From Candidatus Saccharimonadota bacterium (GTDB taxonomy: Bacteria > Patescibacteriota > Saccharimonadia > Saccharimonadales > Saccharimonadaceae), in the NCBI GenBank assembly GCA_017506895.1, contig JAFWBV010000009.1, positions 1-45,957 on the forward strand: a stretch of 45,957 nt of DNA. Reading direction: 5' to 3'. A program made the translations under genes and the position numbers. The notes under the pieces were generated by a model. The model saw nothing but the letters and a program-made list of their open reading frames with translations, did not search any database and was not told the origin of the DNA. Positions 7,647 through 19,384 of the stretch are shown here, one piece after another (positions within the stretch are counted from its first letter, which is position 1; every line of letters begins with the position of its first letter).

Positions 7647-8078
7647 ATGAAGATTGCGCAGGTTAATAAATACTTTATTGATAAAGAAAGTGTGCCGTGC
7701 CCGCTAACGGAAAGATTAGTTAGAGCTGGTTATAGGCAGATGAGTGGTGGATATATTAATAAGGCAAAAATATTGGGGATTGAAAATCCGTCACAGTACT
7801 GGCATCTAACGAGCTATTGTAATTCAGTAGACAAAGACAAGACGTTCGGGAAGAATGTTGAGTGTGGCGAATTGATTTTCTGGATGGCGGAAGTGTCAGG
7901 GGCAGTGCCAGAAAGTGAATTGCGGGAACTTCTGGAGCGAATTATAGCAAGTAAGGATGATATAGTTCCTGGATATGATAGAAGGAAGTGGAACAGGGAA
8001 ATACAAAGGATCTGTTTTGATAGGATTGTCGTGGAGGTTGAGGGAGTAGTCAAAAAATGTCTGCGCACGGATTATTGA
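7647..8078 (+). CDS. unknown 143-residue protein
   Basis: 143 residues with four scattered cysteines and several Trp/Tyr, mixed helix and strand character, no signal peptide. It begins MKIAQVNKYFIDKE and ends KKCLRTDY. It follows the previous gene by 36 bases without a clear ribosome site, perhaps as third gene of the operon. Its stop region lies in a hairpin shared with the convergent restriction operon. No family is recognised. Confidence 0.55.
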   Translation: MKIAQVNKYFIDKESVPCPLTERLVRAGYRQMSGGYINKAKILGIENPSQYWHLTSYCNSVDKDKTFGKNVECGELIFWMAEVSGAVPESELRELLERIIASKDDIVPGYDRRKWNREIQRICFDRIVVEVEGVVKKCLRTDY

Positions 8079-8093
8079 TAACATAATGTTATC
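8077..8093. terminator. possible bidirectional terminator between convergent genes
   Basis: GATAACA and TGTTATC form a 7-base stem around TAA, overlapping the stops of both convergent genes. The stem is AT-rich and T runs are short, so strength is doubtful. Confidence 0.35.
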
Positions 8094-9531
8094 TATCTTT
8101 TGGCAAATAATCTGATATTATTTTGTAAATGGTTGAGAGTCTTTGAAGGCGGTAGTTTTCTGGCTGTTCTTTTAATTGTTTTTTTATCTCTTTTTGCATA
8201 TTATTAATATGATTTCTGTTTGTAATAATATCTGGAAATATGAAGTTTATGATTTTTAGAGTGTTATCGTATTGTCTCCTTTCAGACTCTCTGGTACTCT
8301 CTTTTCCATTTTTGTCCATAATTATTGTATAAATACTTGAATTTGCGAAATATCGTGGCTCCAACCTTTGGTAGTCCTCTATGAGTTTTTGTTCTGGAGT
8401 TTGATTATCCTTGGCGAGTATTATTCTATATGAATTATCATATATTTCACAAATGTCTGCCAATAACCTTTCGTTTAAGTTGTCATCCACTATGTTGCCA
8501 ACGACTGAAGTGTTGATGTGCTCAAGAAACCAGATGTTTTTACCGTCTTGTTTACCTAAGAGATATATTACTAATGATGGATAAAAAGTGGCTATTATTT
8601 TTGATATATTATTCGGTCGTTGTAACAGTGAGTTTAATTTCCAGGAAACAGGTATTGCATTTACAAATGCTTTTTCTTTAGTTGGTTCATTAAAGAAATG
8701 TCTAATACCATTAAAGAGAAAATCTTTTATTATTATTTCAGTTTCTTGATTATTGTTATCTTTTTGCAGTCTTTTATTGAGGTAGTCCATTAATATATCA
8801 AAATCTCCATCAAGCCCACAACCGTTGCGTATTTTATTTAGTAGAAATATACTGGAGGAATTTATCGCTATATTGTCGATTACTGTTTTTAAAACGCTCG
8901 GATTATAGATTTGGACATTATTAAAATTGTTATAAATTATCCTATATCTCACGTATTCTTCCGATGGCTTTTTGGTTATACTTCTTTCGAAAAAAATAGA
9001 AAGATATGCTGGTTGTAATGCTTCTGGCAATTTTTTGTTGCCAAAAATTCTATTCCATGTATCATAAAAATCTTGATCATCAATTTTTTCTAAATATTCT
9101 TTCCATTTTTTAAAACAAAAACTTTCTGTATTGTCTGCTTTTGTAGACGACAACATCCACAATACTATATCTTTAATAATCCACATAATTATCATTGTCG
9201 TTATAATTATGATCACGCTATATATGAAGTTTAGAATTATATTAGTCAATTCGCATGGCATATTATCGATAAATAATAGGCTGGCAATTCCGCCAACAAA
9301 GATTGTTATTATTAGAATTCGAACGTGCATTACGCGTTCTAAAATAACTGCGCGTTCCACTTTTGCAAAATCTTTTTCTTCTTCTGTTTTGTTGCTATTA
9401 TCTATTAAAAAAATCGCAAAAGGAATAAGAAGGGCTATGATTAGACCAAAAAACGTGAGTAAATTGCCTGAACTAATTGATTTAAAAATTACGACAATAG
9501 AATCTGGAATATTTGAACATGGGGTATTCAT
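8089..9531 (-). CDS. membrane protein at the end of the restriction operon, unknown
   Basis: 480 residues from the ATG at 9531, which has AAGGAAAG upstream and lies one base after the stop of the preceding gene; the longer frame would need a TTG at 9549. Three hydrophobic helices lie in the first quarter (about residues 24-44, 71-92, 98-123), followed by about 350 residues of charged, helical cytoplasmic domain with no recognised motif. Tight coupling to the methylase-associated gene suggests it belongs to the system, possibly as a membrane-bound accessory or separate defence module. That role is inference. Confidence 0.65.
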   Translation of the reverse strand: MNTPCSNIPDSIVVIFKSISSGNLLTFFGLIIALLIPFAIFLIDNSNKTEEEKDFAKVERAVILERVMHVRILIITIFVGGIASLLFIDNMPCELTNIILNFIYSVIIIITTMIIMWIIKDIVLWMLSSTKADNTESFCFKKWKEYLEKIDDQDFYDTWNRIFGNKKLPEALQPAYLSIFFERSITKKPSEEYVRYRIIYNNFNNVQIYNPSVLKTVIDNIAINSSSIFLLNKIRNGCGLDGDFDILMDYLNKRLQKDNNNQETEIIIKDFLFNGIRHFFNEPTKEKAFVNAIPVSWKLNSLLQRPNNISKIIATFYPSLVIYLLGKQDGKNIWFLEHINTSVVGNIVDDNLNERLLADICEIYDNSYRIILAKDNQTPEQKLIEDYQRLEPRYFANSSIYTIIMDKNGKESTRESERRQYDNTLKIINFIFPDIITNRNHINNMQKEIKKQLKEQPENYRLQRLSTIYKIISDYLPKDR

Positions 9532-9532
9532 T

Positions 9533-10507
9533 TTAGCTTTCCTTGCCAATTAAGTCAACAAATTTGAGTGTTCTATGTTTTTGCCAGTCCATGATTTTAA
9601 CGTATTTGCCGTTGTGGAGGCGGGGGTCATTTTTGGCGCAGCCGGGGCATTGTTGTTTCTTCGCTTTTTTGTCTGGCTTTTCACCGAGAAGAGCGAGCAT
9701 TGGGGGGATGTCGGGAGTTGCTATTTCGGATTTGCAACTCATTGGGACGACATATTTGAGGCCGTCCATTTGGAAAATGTTCCACGAAATGATAGTAGCG
9801 ATTTCTTCTAGAATTTTGAGTTTTTCGGCTGAAACTTGGCGGTCTAGGTTGATTTTGTCGGAAGGGAACTGGTTGTTCCAGTAATCTATAAAAGTATAAA
9901 GCAGGTTTTCGCGGGCGAGGAGAAGGTTGTCGCCTTGCCATTCGTAACCGTAGGAACATTGAAAGGCGATGGTCGCCCATTCTAGCCAAGAGTTTTTGTC
10001 TTTGCAGAATTTGGAAACGGTTTGGAGTTTGCGGTCTAGGAAGCCGACGCGGTCATCGAGCTTGAGGACTTTTGTGCCATTGGCGGCGTTATAACGATTG
10101 ACAATAAAGGGTGCTTCGCCGCAGGTGATTTCGAGGCGGGTTTCTTTAATATAATCTTGCCAGTTGTTTTCCGTGGTGGGCCAATGGCCAGTGGACCAGT
10201 CAATTTGCTTATTCATTTCATCTACGATGCTGGTGGGGGTAAAGACTTCGGCCTTGTCGCGAGTGCGGGATTTTTGTTCTTCTTTGGATTTGGCGATGCG
10301 AGGCTGGATGAGGTAAGTATTTTTGTCTGATACATCTTCGATTTTGATTTCGTCGGTTGGATTATGATTTTCATATGAGTTAGTAGCCCAGATGATGTTG
10401 TGGATTTTGCTAGCAGTGGTCTTTGTGCGGTCGGTCAGAAGTATGAAAAGTAGACCGTCGTGACGACGAATGGTGTTCTCAAGAATATCAACTTGGAGCT
10501 CGGTCAC
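9533..10507 (-). CDS. restriction-modification partner protein ("restriction endonuclease subunit M"-like)
   Basis: 324 residues from a GTG start six bases after the upstream stop. It carries phrases I associate with the small subunit found beside helicase-Eco57I methylases: SRTRDKAEVFTP, RLEITCGEAPFIVNRY, SYGYEWQGDNLLLARENLL and ISWNIFQMDGLKYVVP. A CPGC pair lies near the C-terminus. No complete methylase motif set (no NPPY) is visible, so it is more likely a specificity or accessory subunit than an independent enzyme. It is transcribed between the large nuclease-helicase-methylase and the membrane protein. Confidence 0.7.
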   Translation of the reverse strand: MTELQVDILENTIRRHDGLLFILLTDRTKTTASKIHNIIWATNSYENHNPTDEIKIEDVSDKNTYLIQPRIAKSKEEQKSRTRDKAEVFTPTSIVDEMNKQIDWSTGHWPTTENNWQDYIKETRLEITCGEAPFIVNRYNAANGTKVLKLDDRVGFLDRKLQTVSKFCKDKNSWLEWATIAFQCSYGYEWQGDNLLLARENLLYTFIDYWNNQFPSDKINLDRQVSAEKLKILEEIATIISWNIFQMDGLKYVVPMSCKSEIATPDIPPMLALLGEKPDKKAKKQQCPGCAKNDPRLHNGKYVKIMDWQKHRTLKFVDLIGKES

Positions 10508-10513
10508 TTATGA

Positions 10514-13500
10514 TTACTCCATTGGTGCAACTTTTTCTTCGATGAAATTAATTTCATCTTCTGAAAGTTTGTATTTTTCGTAAAGTAGTTGATCAATCTC
10601 TGGAATTGACCTTGACCATTTTATTTTAGATTTTTGAGTAAAGTCCTGCAAAGGAATAAATTCCCATACACTAGCTTTTTTATTGCCCGGCGTGACTTTG
10701 TTAATGCTTAAAAGCGTTCTAGCAAATTTTGTTTTAAGGTATTTTAGACAATTATTCGCTTCAAGCTTATTTTTAAAAGAACCTATACTAATAAATGTTT
10801 CTGTATGCCCATCTGAAGGTTGTCCAATAAATGGGGAGGATAGAACTTCTCCGAATGTTCCTGATCCATTTGAGGCTGAAACTAAGACCTTATAGCCATT
10901 ATAATTATTTGGTGGATTAAGATATTTTTCTGGAAAATAATAGAAGGCCCTTTTTTTATTATATAAACCTACGATGTGCGCAAATTTTTGTTGTGTGGCT
11001 GGCTTATTTTTATAGAATACTTCTGGGAATGTCGAGAAAACTGGGGAAGACAAATACCGTTTTGATCCACCAGAGACTCGTTTCGCAAAATCTGGATGTT
11101 CTTTGAAAAAAAGCTTGGAGTATTTATAACTTGTATTTGAATAAATAATTCTAGATAGACTATTATTGCTAATAGAAGAAACTTTGTTTTTTATATCGTT
11201 TAGTTTTCTTATTGGGACAAATGTTCCAATTTTCCCAAACTGTTGAGTTGTGTCATGTAGGGTTATTGCTATTCCGCCTTTAATGTCAACACTTGGAAAA
11301 ACTTCTTTACCATTTTTAACGTATTTTAGAACTTTAAGATGGGTATCGTTAAGCATTTTGTTATTCCATTTTTGGGGAGTTTTCCCGGCGTTGAACAAAA
11401 ATCTTGCCGGATGAATAATGCATGTCTTCTGAGCAATAGTAAAAGCATTATCTAAAAAGAAATGATAAATGGGTGGCTGTTCGCTTCTTCCTTCTATTTC
11501 TTCTTGATATGGTGGATTGCCGACTACTGAAATGAATTTCACCTGTTTGCCTCCTTTTTTGATTTTTTTAATATCAAATGCTATTTCGGAAAATTTCTGA
11601 TTTTGGCATAATACTCTCTTTGTATTTTCGGGCTTCTCTTTAATGATATCATACGCTGTGAATTTTTTGGCGATATTATCGGTATTGAGTCCAATGGCTT
11701 CATACATTTTTCTAGTAAATTCGTAAGCTATGGGTGATGTTGGGATAGAATAAATACGATTTTTTATTAAATGTTCATTTACCCCTAGTTTTTTAAGTGC
11801 TCTGTATGTTGCGAGAGTAAATTCACCAGCTTTACTAGCTATATCTAGGACTGGGCCTTTCTTTAAGGCTTCTCCTAGATTATCAACCATTTCTTCACAG
11901 ATGTTATATGGAGTAATTATTTCTGAGTTGGATAATCTATTAAACTTATTTAATGCGTTTTGCATTCTTTCTATTGGGGTTTTTGTTTTGTCGTTGGATA
12001 GTTCATTAATGTTTTGGATTCTGTAATCTAATTGACTAAGGAGCGGGGGGCTCATTTTTTTCTGAAGAAGAACAAGTGTTGGCTTATCTATTCCAATGTT
12101 TTTTGAAAGAAGTTTGTTCGCTGACTTATTAATTGTTTCAATTATGTCATTAATGTTGGACACGCCATCTTTTGTGAGAAAAGCATAAAAGAGAATTTTA
12201 AAATAATACGCTTCAATTTTCAATTTGATAAGGCTCTCTTTTTCTTCTGGGGTTAATGATTCATACTTATCAGGCTTAGCACTTTCTTTTCCAGTTTCTT
12301 TTTGTTCTGATTCTTCAATGTCCAAATCAGTTTCTTTGCCTTCGTGTGCCTTCTTTTCTAGCAACAATCCTTGTTTACTTCCGATGGGAGATTGAGTATC
12401 AATTATCTCTTTAATTTCGGGAACATTATAAATTTCCATATCTATATTAAGTGTTTTTAATTCATCGATGACGCTAGTATCACTCGAATAGTCGCTAATA
12501 TATTTCATTAAATCAGTCGCGGTAACGCGCTGAATTTTATCAATATTAAAATAAATAATGGGAGATATAGAAAGGTCGTTCTTTAGACGCTCTTTTAGTT
12601 TTGCATTGCCATTTTTCTCGTCATACCAATTGTAAATTTGCGATTTGTTTTCTTGGATTCGGAACATTCGTGACGGTTCAAAATCGACTAGTAGCGTCTG
12701 GGGTTTCATGTCTCTTTTTATGAAGTCATTATTGTTATCCTTTGCTGGATATTTTCTGACATATTGGTTTTGAATCCTAAAAATTGCTTGATCATATTCT
12801 TGTGGAGAACTGAGACTTTTTAAAAAAACCATGCTATCCCATTCCTCAACGGTTACTCCGGTAAGCATTCTATTGACGGTTAAGGTAATGGTTTTCTGGT
12901 CATTATCCTCACATTTTTGGATTTCATTTTTTACGCTTTCAATAGTCTTGTATTGTTTATCATTGTCGACTCCAGATATATTTATTATTTTGTAACCATT
13001 GAGGTTTAGAAAATCTTTTTTGTGTGTTTTGATAAGAGTCTCTAGAGCATCACAGGACGCACGGTAGGGAAGAACAAAAACCATATGTCTGCACATTTTG
13101 CCTTCTTTAATTCGCTCGTCGTTTAAGAAACTTAATATGTTTTTGTCTTCTTTTGAACCATCAATAGCCTTCATCAAATCAAGTACTTCTTTTTCGTTTT
13201 GGAATTTTGTATGATTTTTGTTGACACTATCTTTTTTTATTGATTCTGGCATAAAGAGGTCGGAAAGATTTGCAGATGAATTACTTTTTTGCAACTCGGC
13301 AAGTTTTTTTCTAGCCGATTCGTTAGGGTTGAAGGCGAATCTGACCATTTGTGGAAAACCAAAATATGGATTATCCCATTCTTGATAAGGCTTACCGGTG
13401 TTGTCGTTAACAACTGAGTTTTCGATGTCCGTGAAGTGTTCTTCGTCCCATTTCTTTTTAGCTTTTTCGATGTCGGATAGTTGATAATAGCCAATAATAT

Positions 13501-14587
13501 CTTCGTCCGAAAACTGCTTTTCAAGAAGGATACGATATGGAGTGCCAGAAAGATGAAGTTTTATTTTTGCTTTGAGACTTTTGACAATTTCTTGTGCTTC
13601 GTTGAATTCTTTTTCGTTTGATACGCCTTCGCGTTTATCTTTTGGTTCTTTAATCTGCTTGGTATTTCTTAATACTTCACCGTAGCTTTTTGCCCATGCG
13701 CCAAAATGTGTTTCGTCTATAATAATCAGATCGATTTTACTATTAAAGAGCTCCTTGTGTTTTTCCTTGATTTGTTTGCCGTTGAGATCTTGAAGGGTGA
13801 GAAAAATGGTTGCGGTTTTGCCCTTTTTGATTGTGCTTTTAATTATGTTTTTGTCACTTAATAAATCTTTTGCGTTTAAGAAAACAAATTTTTCAAAGCC
13901 GATAATACTTTGTACTGTTCGTTGCCATTCTTCTCCAACATCAGCTTTTGCTGATACGATTAGAACGGTTTTTGCCTTCATTTCTTGGGCGCAGCGTAAA
14001 GCTACGACGCTTTTACCAAACCTCATTACTGCATAAAGAAGCAGATTTGTCCGATTATTTTTGAGTGCGGTTTTGAATCTTTCGATGACTTGATTTTGCT
14101 CATCTCGTAGAACTAGTTTTGTGGTTCTTTTATATTCATATGTTTTTGGAAGTCTTTTTTCGGCATCATAGTATTGATATTTATTTGCATTTTCGTAATA
14201 TTTGTCTTTAATGTCTTCGATTGCGGATTCGATGTCTTCTGGGGAGGTGTTTTCGAAAAATTCTTTAGAGTAATATGGGATACTAAGCTCGCCTTTTTGT
14301 AATTGATGTTTTTTGAGGTCATTTTTCAAGTAAGAATGGACGGCAAAATCCCTAAAATATGTGTTGTTTGAAACTAATGCGCTTTCGCTAAATTCTTTTT
14401 TGAGATTTTTGTAGTATTTTTTCCACTCATCCAATCTCAAAGATAATAACCGATATGTGTCACCTATTTTTAAGTAATTTGGAACCGTTTGCGTAGAAAA
14501 AGCATAGATTGTGGGTTCTTGGCGACCACTTATGATTAAATTTGCCGAATTCTCTTTTTCCCACTGGTTTTTTAGGGTTTCTTTCAT
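10514..14587 (-). CDS. fused GIY-YIG-like / superfamily 2 helicase / Eco57I-type DNA methyltransferase
   Basis: 1357 residues. Residues about 25-60 (TIYAFSTQTV, then YLKIGDT and RLDEW) resemble the T5orf172/GIY-YIG nuclease fold; its catalytic Glu is not obvious. A superfamily 2 helicase follows: AVMRFGKSVVA (Walker A variant, about 189), IIDETHFGAW (Walker B, about 291), LSGTPYR (motif III). The methylase part has LDIASKAGEF (motif I, about 912) and VVGNPPYQEE (motif IV, about 1024), the N6-adenine type. A target-recognition region ends the chain. The product would recognise, methylate and, when unmodified, translocate on and cleave DNA. It has its own promoter at 14614 with a GAGG ribosome site. 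Confidence 0.8.
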   Translation of the reverse strand: MKETLKNQWEKENSANLIISGRQEPTIYAFSTQTVPNYLKIGDTYRLLSLRLDEWKKYYKNLKKEFSESALVSNNTYFRDFAVHSYLKNDLKKHQLQKGELSIPYYSKEFFENTSPEDIESAIEDIKDKYYENANKYQYYDAEKRLPKTYEYKRTTKLVLRDEQNQVIERFKTALKNNRTNLLLYAVMRFGKSVVALRCAQEMKAKTVLIVSAKADVGEEWQRTVQSIIGFEKFVFLNAKDLLSDKNIIKSTIKKGKTATIFLTLQDLNGKQIKEKHKELFNSKIDLIIIDETHFGAWAKSYGEVLRNTKQIKEPKDKREGVSNEKEFNEAQEIVKSLKAKIKLHLSGTPYRILLEKQFSDEDIIGYYQLSDIEKAKKKWDEEHFTDIENSVVNDNTGKPYQEWDNPYFGFPQMVRFAFNPNESARKKLAELQKSNSSANLSDLFMPESIKKDSVNKNHTKFQNEKEVLDLMKAIDGSKEDKNILSFLNDERIKEGKMCRHMVFVLPYRASCDALETLIKTHKKDFLNLNGYKIINISGVDNDKQYKTIESVKNEIQKCEDNDQKTITLTVNRMLTGVTVEEWDSMVFLKSLSSPQEYDQAIFRIQNQYVRKYPAKDNNNDFIKRDMKPQTLLVDFEPSRMFRIQENKSQIYNWYDEKNGNAKLKERLKNDLSISPIIYFNIDKIQRVTATDLMKYISDYSSDTSVIDELKTLNIDMEIYNVPEIKEIIDTQSPIGSKQGLLLEKKAHEGKETDLDIEESEQKETGKESAKPDKYESLTPEEKESLIKLKIEAYYFKILFYAFLTKDGVSNINDIIETINKSANKLLSKNIGIDKPTLVLLQKKMSPPLLSQLDYRIQNINELSNDKTKTPIERMQNALNKFNRLSNSEIITPYNICEEMVDNLGEALKKGPVLDIASKAGEFTLATYRALKKLGVNEHLIKNRIYSIPTSPIAYEFTRKMYEAIGLNTDNIAKKFTAYDIIKEKPENTKRVLCQNQKFSEIAFDIKKIKKGGKQVKFISVVGNPPYQEEIEGRSEQPPIYHFFLDNAFTIAQKTCIIHPARFLFNAGKTPQKWNNKMLNDTHLKVLKYVKNGKEVFPSVDIKGGIAITLHDTTQQFGKIGTFVPIRKLNDIKNKVSSISNNSLSRIIYSNTSYKYSKLFFKEHPDFAKRVSGGSKRYLSSPVFSTFPEVFYKNKPATQQKFAHIVGLYNKKRAFYYFPEKYLNPPNNYNGYKVLVSASNGSGTFGEVLSSPFIGQPSDGHTETFISIGSFKNKLEANNCLKYLKTKFARTLLSINKVTPGNKKASVWEFIPLQDFTQKSKIKWSRSIPEIDQLLYEKYKLSEDEINFIEEKVAPME

Positions 14588-14613
14588 TTTTGACCTCGCT
14601 AATAACTATTTTA

Positions 14614-14619
14614 ATTATA
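14614..14619 (-). promoter_or_regulatory. internal promoter of the helicase-methylase gene
   Basis: TGT-TATAAT on the minus strand, 26 bases before the ATG at 14587. This gives the large gene expression independent of the upstream interrupted nuclease gene. Confidence 0.5.
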
Positions 14620-14657
14620 ACATCTTTAATTATGTTTGTTATTAAGAGTGTGTGGAT

Positions 14658-15155
14658 TTATTGAAATAACTCGTCTAGATAATTTTTGCCGAATTGGCTT
14701 GGAGTGAAATATTTGACTTCGCCTTTGTCGTTGACGGCGAAAATATGCAAACTTAATACTTCAGCGACTTCTTTGGGAATTCTTCTTAAAGCAACTTGAG
14801 CGGATTACCAATATAAACCGAGACCGTATTTGTAGGCGCGATTTATACCGGTTATTGTTTTACCGTCTTTTCTTGAAACCGAAAATCTTTTGACATTCAT
14901 CCTTGTGATTATTTGACCAAGAGCGGTGAGCCAGCCTTCTTTATTGATGGATTTGGCAGATTTGGCATATGATTTGCCCTTACATTCAATCGTAAAATAT
15001 TCACTATTTCTCTTGCCTCCTATAAGAACGATGTCTGGGCCGTGTTCGTGGAGATTAGTTTTTTTAGTTTTTTCATGGTGCCAATTACCGTCTTTTTTGT
15101 TTTCCATGAAGTTGATGATTTGTTTAGCGACGTATGTTTCGTCTATTCTGTTCAT
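14658..15155 (-). pseudogene. PD-(D/E)XK-like nuclease gene interrupted by an in-frame TAA
   Basis: The first 116 residues (to 14808) contain HGPDIVLIGG followed after a strand by YFTIECKGK, the D...E-x-K pattern of restriction-like nucleases. A TAA at 14807-14805 stops translation after LGLYW. The same frame then continues without another stop for 48 codons (SAQVALRRIPKEVAEVLS... to FGKNYLDELFQ) up to a TAA at 14660-14658, clearly protein-like. One substitution therefore seems to have split a 165-residue protein. The truncated 116-residue form keeps the putative active site and might still act; readthrough or a sequencing error are alternatives. It lies 17 bases after the upstream gene, with an AAAGGA ribosome site. 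Confidence 0.7.
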
Positions 15156-15172
15156 TGCTATATTATCCTTTC

Positions 15173-15784
15173 TTATTTTAATGCAAAGCGGTCGGTCCAG
15201 TCGCGCTTATGTTTGTTTTTCTTGGCTTTTCGGCAATTGCTCAAAGTAGCGTTGTTTTTTGCTTTTATTTCGGCATACTGGCGTTTAAGATCAGTGGATT
15301 TTGGCACATAACATTCAGCCAAAAGATAGTGTTCTTTCAGATAGGATAAGTTTGTATTTGATTTCTTTCTGGGTGTTTTGGCACGCAAATAGTTGGTCTT
15401 AACGCTTTTTCTTGGGCTTGGAGAATAGGAGAATGTTGTTGGTTGTCCAATATTTTTCGGAAGTCGATGCTCTGCAATGTCGCCCATCAAAGGTTTTGTT
15501 GTAGTTTTTTTTCTCGATGTATTATCAGATTTCTGTAAATCGATATGATGACGTTGTCTAATTTTACTAAGTTTTCTCTTAAGTAGCTTAAGGGAACGGC
15601 GAAGTTCTTTTTCGGGTTCCACCTTCCGGTCGCGTTGTTTTGTGACTTGTAATTTTGAATCCTTTTTCTGAATAGTGCGTTTTGGCTCTGGACGATTGGG
15701 GTCAAAATGGTTTAGCACTTCAGAATAATCATCTGATGTAGACATTTTTTCCATAGTTTCTGGAGAAACATAGATTTTGGACAT
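15173..15784 (-). CDS. highly basic protein leading the restriction operon, unknown
   Basis: 203 residues, extremely rich in Lys and Arg (for example LKLLKRKLSKIRQRHH and RKAKKNKHKRDW), low in hydrophobic residues and probably largely disordered. It would bind nucleic acid by charge alone; no domain is recognised. It is the first gene of the minus-strand restriction operon, starting leaderless from the promoter at 15791. The start at 15784 is fixed by that promoter. Confidence 0.6.
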   Translation of the reverse strand: MSKIYVSPETMEKMSTSDDYSEVLNHFDPNRPEPKRTIQKKDSKLQVTKQRDRKVEPEKELRRSLKLLKRKLSKIRQRHHIDLQKSDNTSRKKTTTKPLMGDIAEHRLPKNIGQPTTFSYSPSPRKSVKTNYLRAKTPRKKSNTNLSYLKEHYLLAECYVPKSTDLKRQYAEIKAKNNATLSNCRKAKKNKHKRDWTDRFALK

Positions 15785-15790
15785 ATCTGT

Positions 15791-15796
15791 ATTCTA
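15791..15796 (-). promoter_or_regulatory. extended -10 box of the restriction operon
   Basis: TGA-TAGAAT on the minus strand with six bases to the ATG at 15784; leaderless start predicted. Confidence 0.55.
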
Positions 15797-15846
15797 TCAT
15801 TAATCTTTTCAAGAGTATATTGTATGTGGTTATTATACTAGAATGT

Positions 15847-15852
15847 TATAAT
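15847..15852 (+). promoter_or_regulatory. extended -10 box for the 15859 gene
   Basis: TGT-TATAAT with six bases to the ATG at 15859. It diverges from the restriction operon promoter 50 bases away. Confidence 0.65.
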
Positions 15853-15858
15853 TATTCT

Positions 15859-16293
15859 ATGGATAAGTTGATTAAACAAAGCATCGACTCGCGGAGGGAT
15901 GCGATAAAAAATAGTTTTGAAATTGATGCGGGGGCGCAGAAAAAAATTGATGCATTATTTGCCGAAATAGACAAACTAGGGGAGAAGTGTAAAGATGTTG
16001 GTGAATTCGAAGCAGAATTCAGTAAAAGTCCACTCAACCAAAAATATATGGATCTCTTTACGGAAATCGCGACAAAGTCGGCTGCGAAGAATGTCGCAAA
16101 GGGTGCGGTCGTGGGTGTTGTACAGAGTGCGGCAGAACAAGCTTTAAGAAAAGTCGTTCCGACACGTGCTGCAGTTCATCAAAAAGCCTATGATGTGGCA
16201 CGAGACGTGCCGGTATTAGGTGGTGCAATCGACATCGCCGAAAAAACTAGTTATTTGGGTCACTTCGGTAAGTTATTTAAAAAGAAGAAATGA
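15859..16293 (+). CDS. small alanine/lysine-rich protein, unknown
   Basis: 144 residues from the ATG six bases after the -10 box; an earlier in-frame ATG (15820) lies upstream of that promoter. The first half is helical and charged. Residues about 75-120 are Ala/Val/Gly-rich (NVAKGAVVGVVQSAAEQAL), amphipathic or weakly membrane-seeking. The end is basic (GKLFKKKK). No family recognised. It is divergent from the restriction operon and followed by another small membrane protein, so it may be part of the same accessory block. Confidence 0.6.
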   Translation: MDKLIKQSIDSRRDAIKNSFEIDAGAQKKIDALFAEIDKLGEKCKDVGEFEAEFSKSPLNQKYMDLFTEIATKSAAKNVAKGAVVGVVQSAAEQALRKVVPTRAAVHQKAYDVARDVPVLGGAIDIAEKTSYLGHFGKLFKKKK

Positions 16294-19039: not shown

Positions 19040-19384
19040 TTAATTGTCGTCTCTTAGGTCGTAGTCTTCGGCACCGATGCCGTAGCCGAGTTCGTAGGCT
19101 TCGCGTTGATCATCGTCAAGTTCATCTAAATTGACCGAGGAGCCAAAACCGGAGTGGGGAAGCATATGATGCTCTCTGTCGAAACGGCCATCGTCTATGC
19201 CAAGAGCTTCATAATAAGAAGCGTCGTGATAATCGTCACTATCATCGTGCTCTTCGTCGTCTAAATCGTCATCAAAGTCGTCACTATAATCATCGTCGTT
19301 GTCCGAATCGTAATCATCATACAATTCGTCATCTTCTCTATCGAGACCATAATCTTCATCGTCATATTCGTCGTAATCATCCAT
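19040..19384 (-). CDS. extremely aspartate-rich protein
   Basis: 114 residues. The first 60 are nearly all Asp, Glu, Tyr and Ser, with runs such as DDYDSDNDDDYSDDFDDD. The last 50 are ordinary acidic helix (NLDELDDDQREAYELGYGIG). Total charge is very negative and the protein must be largely disordered or cation-binding. It is a real gene by its leaderless promoter (six-base spacing) and full-length frame. Possible roles such as metal buffering or DNA mimicry are only inference. Confidence 0.6.
   Translation of the reverse strand: MDDYDEYDDEDYGLDREDDELYDDYDSDNDDDYSDDFDDDLDDEEHDDSDDYHDASYYEALGIDDGRFDREHHMLPHSGFGSSVNLDELDDDQREAYELGYGIGAEDYDLRDDN

What the first reader, a model, noticed from the sequence alone, without database searches (positions are those of the whole stretch)
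14658..15155. In-frame stop splitting a restriction-like nuclease
TAA at 14807-14805 interrupts a frame that continues 48 codons with clearly protein-like sequence. The nuclease motif lies before the stop. Loss of the cutter while the methylase remains could be selected to avoid self-damage; phase variation or readthrough are other options.
Basis: seen in the sequence. Interest (0 to 1): 0.52.

Follow-up and report, generated by a model that had tools for sequence, protein, structure and literature searches.

The report
Recently broken nuclease beside restriction genes
A small DNA-cutting-type protein gene in a tiny-genome bacterium carries a single early stop codon that removes its last 48 residues, most likely an ordinary recent gene break, and the restriction machinery next to it probably does not depend on it.

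Summary
TAA at 14805-14807 (minus strand) splits a 165-codon frame. Homologues in gut Clostridia/Bacilli MAGs and in Patescibacteria read straight through with a sense codon, and the 48 codons after the stop are as conserved as those before it. The gene encodes a small PD-(D/E)XK-type nuclease. Its catalytic residues lie before the stop, but two helices and two strands of the fold, with the conserved RRIP segment, lie after it. AlphaFold is confident for an intact homologue (pLDDT 85) and poor for the 116-residue form (60). Best reading: a recent nonsense mutation that inactivates the gene; an assembly error cannot be excluded without reads.

The next gene is a type IIG-like fusion with its own T5orf172 (GIY-YIG) domain, helicase and methylase. 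Relatives of that gene and its 324-aa partner occur in three other genomes with no such nuclease next to them. Homologues of the small nuclease sit beside type I, II and III R-M genes instead. It looks like optional cargo of defence islands, so "cutter lost, methylase kept" is not supported. Nothing supports phase variation by slippage or programmed readthrough. The more interesting point is the unnamed, R-M-associated nuclease family itself.

The parts
14808..15155 (-). Truncated ORF (116 codons) of a small PD-(D/E)XK-type nuclease; AAGGA-like ribosome site upstream
14979..15035 (-). Catalytic core motif: GPD41 ... E57-C-K59
   Evidence: sequence; invariant or nearly invariant columns; invariant
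14805..14807 (-). Premature TAA stop; sense codon in all aligned homologues
14661..14804 (-). Orphaned 48-codon tail (conserved SAxxAxRRIP ... IFSV ... G.VK segment), not decayed; only one in-frame start-type codon (TTG, 19th codon)
14658..14660 (-). Original stop codon of the full-length frame
10514..14587 (-). Type IIG-like fusion: T5orf172 (GIY-YIG-type) domain, ResIII helicase, Eco57I methylase (NPPY)
9533..10507 (-). 324-aa partner of the fusion (PADLOC MTase_II match over its C-terminal two thirds); 54-65% identical partner in three other genomes
15173..15784 (-). 203-aa basic protein just upstream in the same orientation (17-nt gap), no family; weak homologue at the same spot in G280
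8046..15833 (.). Variable low-G+C defence-type island carrying all the above

Best explanation
A recent single-codon nonsense mutation has inactivated a horizontally acquired, optional PD-(D/E)XK nuclease gene in a defence island of a small-genome Patescibacterium. Translation would start normally, pass the catalytic residues and stop at codon 117. The product lacks the last two helices and two strands of the domain and most likely fails to fold into an active nuclease. The adjacent IIG-like restriction-methylation unit is a separate system that probably still works. Shown: the stop, the intact homologues, the conserved and undecayed tail, the variable genomic spot, and the same R-M pair elsewhere without this gene. 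Inferred: loss of activity, continued function of the R-M unit, and that the stop is biological rather than an assembly error.
For: None of 17 homologues ends at this position. The tail contains residues invariant across Firmicutes and Patescibacteria (S118, A119, A122, R125, I126, P127, A131, F139), and the window keeps all eight. dN after the stop is no higher than before it, so the stop is young. The AF2 model of an intact homologue has pLDDT 85.4 and pTM 0.82, with its best-predicted blocks after residue 110; the 116-residue window protein gives 59.8 and 0.51. The gene is sporadic: 2 of 295 same-family genomes with the single sequence and 4 of 342 same-class genomes with the profile, own genome included. 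The spot is variable: in G280 it holds BrxA/BrxB/BrxC and GmrSD-like genes between conserved flanks.
Against: No reads, second strain or expression data could be examined, so a consensus error or strain mixture remains possible. The undecayed tail fits those readings equally well. The AF2 comparison uses two different proteins and alignments (17 and 12 rows) and does not measure folding. A retained catalytic half could have residual activity.
Confidence: 0.77

Rival explanations
1. The stop is an assembly or consensus error, or a minority strain variant, and most cells carry an intact gene.
For: One substitution separates TAA from the sense codon of most relatives, and nothing after it has decayed. 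The passages read in PMC3488263 report that many premature stops and frameshifts in R-M genes of older genomes were sequencing errors.
Against: The other long window ORFs are intact: 38 ORFs of at least 80 aa were listed and no other stop is followed by a homology-like continuation that is not already a separate gene (by eye). Isolated substitution errors are rare in short-read assemblies (general knowledge). Reads not available.
Confidence: 0.13
2. The cutter of the neighbouring methylase was selectively lost to avoid self-damage, leaving a solitary methylase.
For: A nuclease-like gene sits directly upstream of a methylase gene in the same orientation. Solitary methylases are more common than solitary nucleases (PMC4176335, passages).
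Against: The neighbour has its own T5orf172 domain and helicase and matches a IIG restriction-methylase model at 1120 bits over nearly its full length. The same pair lacks the small gene in 3 of 3 other genomes where I read it. [quoted passage not shown]
Confidence: 0.05
3. Programmed readthrough or phase variation makes both a short and a long form.
For: The tail is undecayed and in frame.
Against: No simple-sequence tract or repeat at the stop for slippage. TAA is the dominant stop here (28 of 38). Homologues have no stop, so no conserved recoding site exists. No suppressor tRNA in the window (the rest of the genome was not scanned).
Confidence: 0.03
4. The 116-residue form is functional, for example as a dimer or a DNA-binding regulator.
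For: Catalytic residues are complete before the stop.
Against: Low-confidence model of the short form; the lost segment holds invariant residues.
Confidence: 0.02

Closest known systems
PD-(D/E)XK (restriction-endonuclease-like) nuclease superfamily
   Same: D-x15-ExK plus Q motif; model aligns to PaqCI (Z 8.6, 122 residues, rmsd 3.6), R.BspD6I small subunit (Z 7.5, 126 residues, rmsd 3.6) and HamA (Z 7.2, 123 residues, rmsd 4.8)
   Different: No Pfam, NCBIfam, PADLOC or PHROGs family reached a curated or convincing match; Foldseek found nothing at E <= 0.001
NOV_C / DUF3883 REase-like domain (PF13020)
   Same: 7 of 10 homologues give weak matches, best E 0.0021. Passages of PMC3710099 call DUF3883 a novel REase domain near R-M genes
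   Different: The member shown scores 18.6 bits, below the 22.1 cut-off; our protein is stand-alone, not fused to a helicase
Type IIG restriction enzyme-methyltransferases (neighbouring gene)
   Same: Nuclease-like domain, helicase and Eco57I-type methylase in one chain; PADLOC REase_MTase_IIG 1120 bits
   Different: N-terminal T5orf172 instead of a PD-(D/E)XK domain, plus a ResIII helicase
Heterodimeric R.BspD6I small subunit
   Same: Small stand-alone PD-(D/E)XK protein encoded with a larger restriction enzyme (the pairing is recalled); structural alignment over residues 2-164
   Different: Sequence identity 14%; partnership with any R-M protein untested here

Membership tests
PD-(D/E)XK nuclease superfamily | D ... 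(D/E)XK catalytic signature | tested here: met
   E57, K59, G60, Q81 invariant and D41 nearly invariant in the 12-row alignment
PD-(D/E)XK nuclease superfamily | Alpha-beta core fold shared with restriction enzymes | tested here: inconclusive
   AF2 model pLDDT 85; best matches are mostly known nucleases (Z up to 8.6) but Z is middling and Foldseek E > 0.001
PD-(D/E)XK nuclease superfamily | Metal-dependent DNA cleavage | not testable with these tools
   needs biochemistry
Cognate type II endonuclease of the adjacent methylase | Consistent genetic linkage to that methylase | tested here: not met
   The pair lacks the gene in G072, G670 and G680 (3 of 3 read); no other homologue locus carries the fusion
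NOV_C / DUF3883 (PF13020) | Pfam gathering score | tested here: not met
   18.6 bits against a 22.1 cut-off for the member shown in full; no match for the window protein at E <= 1
Nonsense pseudogene | Premature stop absent from homologues, removing conserved sequence | tested here: met
Nonsense pseudogene | Further decay after the stop | tested here: not met
   dN not raised after the stop; a very recent break would not show it
Phase-variable gene | Slippage tract or inverted repeats at the switch | tested here: not met
Stop-codon readthrough gene | Conserved stop position or suppressor tRNA | tested here: inconclusive
   No stop in homologues; only the window was scanned for tRNAs
Type IIG restriction enzyme-methyltransferase (neighbour) | Single chain with nuclease and methylase domains | tested here: met
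   PADLOC model over residues 15-1353; Eco57I and ResIII; T5orf172 32.0 bits against a cut-off of 20 when the first 160 residues are scanned alone (not listed in the whole-protein scan)

The most novel reading that the evidence does not exclude
The broken gene belongs to an unnamed family of small stand-alone PD-(D/E)XK proteins that move between gut Firmicutes and Patescibacteria and attach to restriction systems of every type as an accessory nuclease subunit, supplying or sharpening double-strand cleavage or destroying restriction products. The window would then catch a host that has just switched off the accessory cutter while keeping the core system.
Probability: 0.22. Interest if true: 0.5.

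Novelty: new member of a known kind. Interest (0 to 1): 0.27.

Why it matters
The nonsense mutation itself is ordinary gene decay in a fast-turnover defence island. What could matter is the nuclease family: it has no name in four curated libraries, is shared between gut Clostridia and the host-dependent Patescibacteria, and sits next to type I, II, III and IIG restriction genes far more often than control stretches do. If it is a general accessory of restriction systems, intact copies from gut Clostridia make that directly testable.

Tried and rejected
Chance open frame: probability 0.067 from composition alone, rejected because homology runs across the stop. Different genetic code: rejected because TAA, TAG and TGA all end window ORFs (28, 6 and 4 of 38). 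Slippage or inversion: no suitable repeat. Phage or plasmid origin: tblastn of an intact homologue found no match in either collection; two near-identical viral contigs (L024, L025) and one distant one (L026) do carry relatives. Apparent internal stops reported for G109, G257 and G798 proved to be their own terminal stops. Solved structures by sequence: none at E <= 1. Literature: hsdR+PDDEXK+accessory+operon gave 0 papers. The searches showed, in listings and abstracts, no description of this small family. Passages, not whole texts, were read of PMC3488263, PMC4176335, PMC3710099 and PMC10609329. Rows dropped before the neighbourhood count: L025 (near-copy of L024), L016 and L017 (same loci as L011 and L010), L020 (short form of L048), L014 (same place as L069).

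Weak points of the neighbourhood test: seeds came partly from the tested loci; loci differ in length (3.0-17.0 kb) while controls are all 12 kb; controls come from Patescibacteria only and were hand-placed, not randomised; one counted locus (L024) is a prophage-type methylase rather than an R-M system. The first Fisher value used a wrong control count (0 of 20) and was replaced.

Full report
What is there. The window is contig C9 of a 715-kb, 12-contig draft genome, 92% complete. On the minus strand, 15155-14805 is a 116-codon ORF with a plausible ribosome site, ended by TAA at 14807-14805. The same frame continues for 48 codons to a second TAA at 14660-14658.

Is the stop abnormal? Yes. Eleven relatives came from one scan of GTDB genomes: gut or rumen Clostridia and Bacilli MAGs at 60-87% identity in the best segment, and Peribacteria and Zambryskibacteria at 38-47%. 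All run through the position. Among eight close relatives compared codon by codon, the position holds a sense codon in all eight, the same amino acid in seven. Three same-class genomes flagged with an internal stop only had their normal terminal stop inside the match. One locus, L048 in G388, is a different kind of decayed copy that lacks the N-terminal catalytic part.

How old is it? Synonymous sites between the window and its relatives are saturated, while amino-acid divergence after the stop (dN 0.15-0.28) is not higher than before it (0.17-0.38) for the same eight pairs, apart from L003, where the two are nearly equal (0.18 after, 0.17 before). All eight tail columns that are invariant are kept by the window. 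The tail was therefore under selection for nearly all of its history, and the stop is very recent, polymorphic or artefactual. These three cannot be separated without reads.

What does the stop remove? In the AF2 model of the intact homologue L004 (pLDDT 85.4, pTM 0.82), helices 116-125 and 128-134 and strands 136-141 and 147-150 lie at or beyond the stop and are among the most confident parts. The window's 116-residue product modelled alone reached pLDDT 59.8 and pTM 0.51, and the helix holding Q81 is no longer predicted as one long helix. The two jobs differ in protein and alignment, so this is suggestive only. Fold comparison of the intact model gives mostly nucleases: PaqCI Z 8.6, R.BspD6I small subunit 7.5, HamA 7.2, EndoMS 7.1. 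These are middling values, and Foldseek had nothing at E <= 0.001. Together with the D-x15-ExK and Q motif, a PD-(D/E)XK nuclease is the best reading. No family in Pfam, NCBIfam, PADLOC or PHROGs claims it; the nearest are sub-threshold NOV_C (7 of 10 members) and MTES_1575 (5 of 10) matches, and one of 17 members weakly matched a PADLOC model, HEC-02B, at E 0.0024.

Is it the cutter of the next gene? Probably not. The 1357-aa neighbour scores 1120 bits against PADLOC's type IIG enzyme model and has ResIII and Eco57I domains. Its first 160 residues, scanned alone, match T5orf172, a GIY-YIG-type domain (that class is recalled), at 32 bits against a cut-off of 20. Of 199 same-family genomes, 22 have a match to it, against 2 of 295 for the small nuclease, own genome included in both. 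In the three relatives whose surroundings I read (G072 40% identical over the whole chain; G670 and G680 more distant), the 324-aa partner follows at 54-65% identity and no small PD-(D/E)XK gene is adjacent. T5orf172 was detected in the G072 relative but not in the part of the G670 relative that I scanned. So the R-M unit exists without this gene, and its own nuclease domain may suffice; neither was tested by experiment.

Where does the family live? In 20 homologue loci outside the window, 13 carry a restriction or methylase gene in the fetched flank (Pfam names): eight type I (L003, L004, L005, L010, L026, L043, L044, L045), one type III (L011), two with an EcoRI-type methylase plus DUF262 (L012, L068), one with a C5 methylase (L007) and one prophage methylase (L024). 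In L044 the small gene overlaps the end of hsdR and in L043 it follows hsdR after a few bases. The seven without include four contigs under 8 kb with nothing recognised (L006, L009, L067, L069), the decayed L048, L002 with an RloA-like gene, and L008, which has a ResIII protein by Pfam that I did not count. In 20 hand-placed control stretches of 12 kb from seven of the Patescibacteria genomes, the same seeds hit 2. One-sided Fisher p is 0.0004 for 13 against 2, and 0.007 for 10 against 2 when a locus may be hit only by seeds from other loci.

The island. Base composition drops to 31-40% G+C between 8000 and 16000, against 38-48% around it. DNA matches to 60 same-genus genomes (own included) cover the flanks in many, but the listed matches within about 8046-15833 are only the 324-aa gene in G670 and G680 and a 42-bp piece in G280 (the tool did not list all matches). 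In G280, between flanking genes 74-92% identical to the window's and after a weak homologue of the 203-aa gene, lie BrxA, BrxB, BrxC and a GmrSD-like gene. In G798 a distant relative of the small nuclease sits with an EcoRI-type methylase and DUF262 gene a few kb from glmS, the same neighbourhood. This is a defence hotspot with rapid turnover, where recently broken genes are expected.

Verdict. The most likely explanation is a recent nonsense break of an optional accessory nuclease. The proposed selection story is not supported, phase variation and readthrough have no positive evidence, and sequencing error is the main rival. The small nuclease family and its repeated place next to restriction genes is the part worth following.

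Noticed in passing
L057 (G280:C41:43000-51900), corresponding to window ~8046-15833: Same chromosomal spot holds BrxA, BrxB, BrxC and a GmrSD-like gene in a same-genus genome: a defence hotspot with interchangeable cargo.
   Followed up: partly
L068:6409-9160 (G798); L012:1931-6303; L007:1126-6456: EcoRI-type adenine methylase plus DUF262 gene pair (56-65% identical across loci) recurs near members of this nuclease family in Clostridia and Patescibacteria.
   Followed up: partly
L048 (G388:C15, around record 8450-8605): A homologue that lacks the N-terminal catalytic part but keeps the tail: an independently decayed copy.
   Followed up: partly
window 8089-9549 (-): 486-aa protein with hydrophobic N-terminal stretches overlapping the 324-aa gene by 17 nt; no Pfam or PADLOC match, possible unknown cargo of the R-M unit.
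   Followed up: partly
window 9533-10507 (-): 324-aa partner of the IIG-like fusion, conserved at 54-65% with it in three genomes; no Pfam domain, only a PADLOC MTase_II model.
   Followed up: partly
window 19040-19384 (-): Very acidic 114-aa protein (Asp/Glu-rich N-terminal half) conserved at 90-95% over its C-terminal half in same-genus genomes.
   Followed up: no
window 15820-16293 (+): 157-aa protein conserved (65-76%) beside the hotspot in several same-genus genomes, no Pfam or PADLOC match.
   Followed up: no
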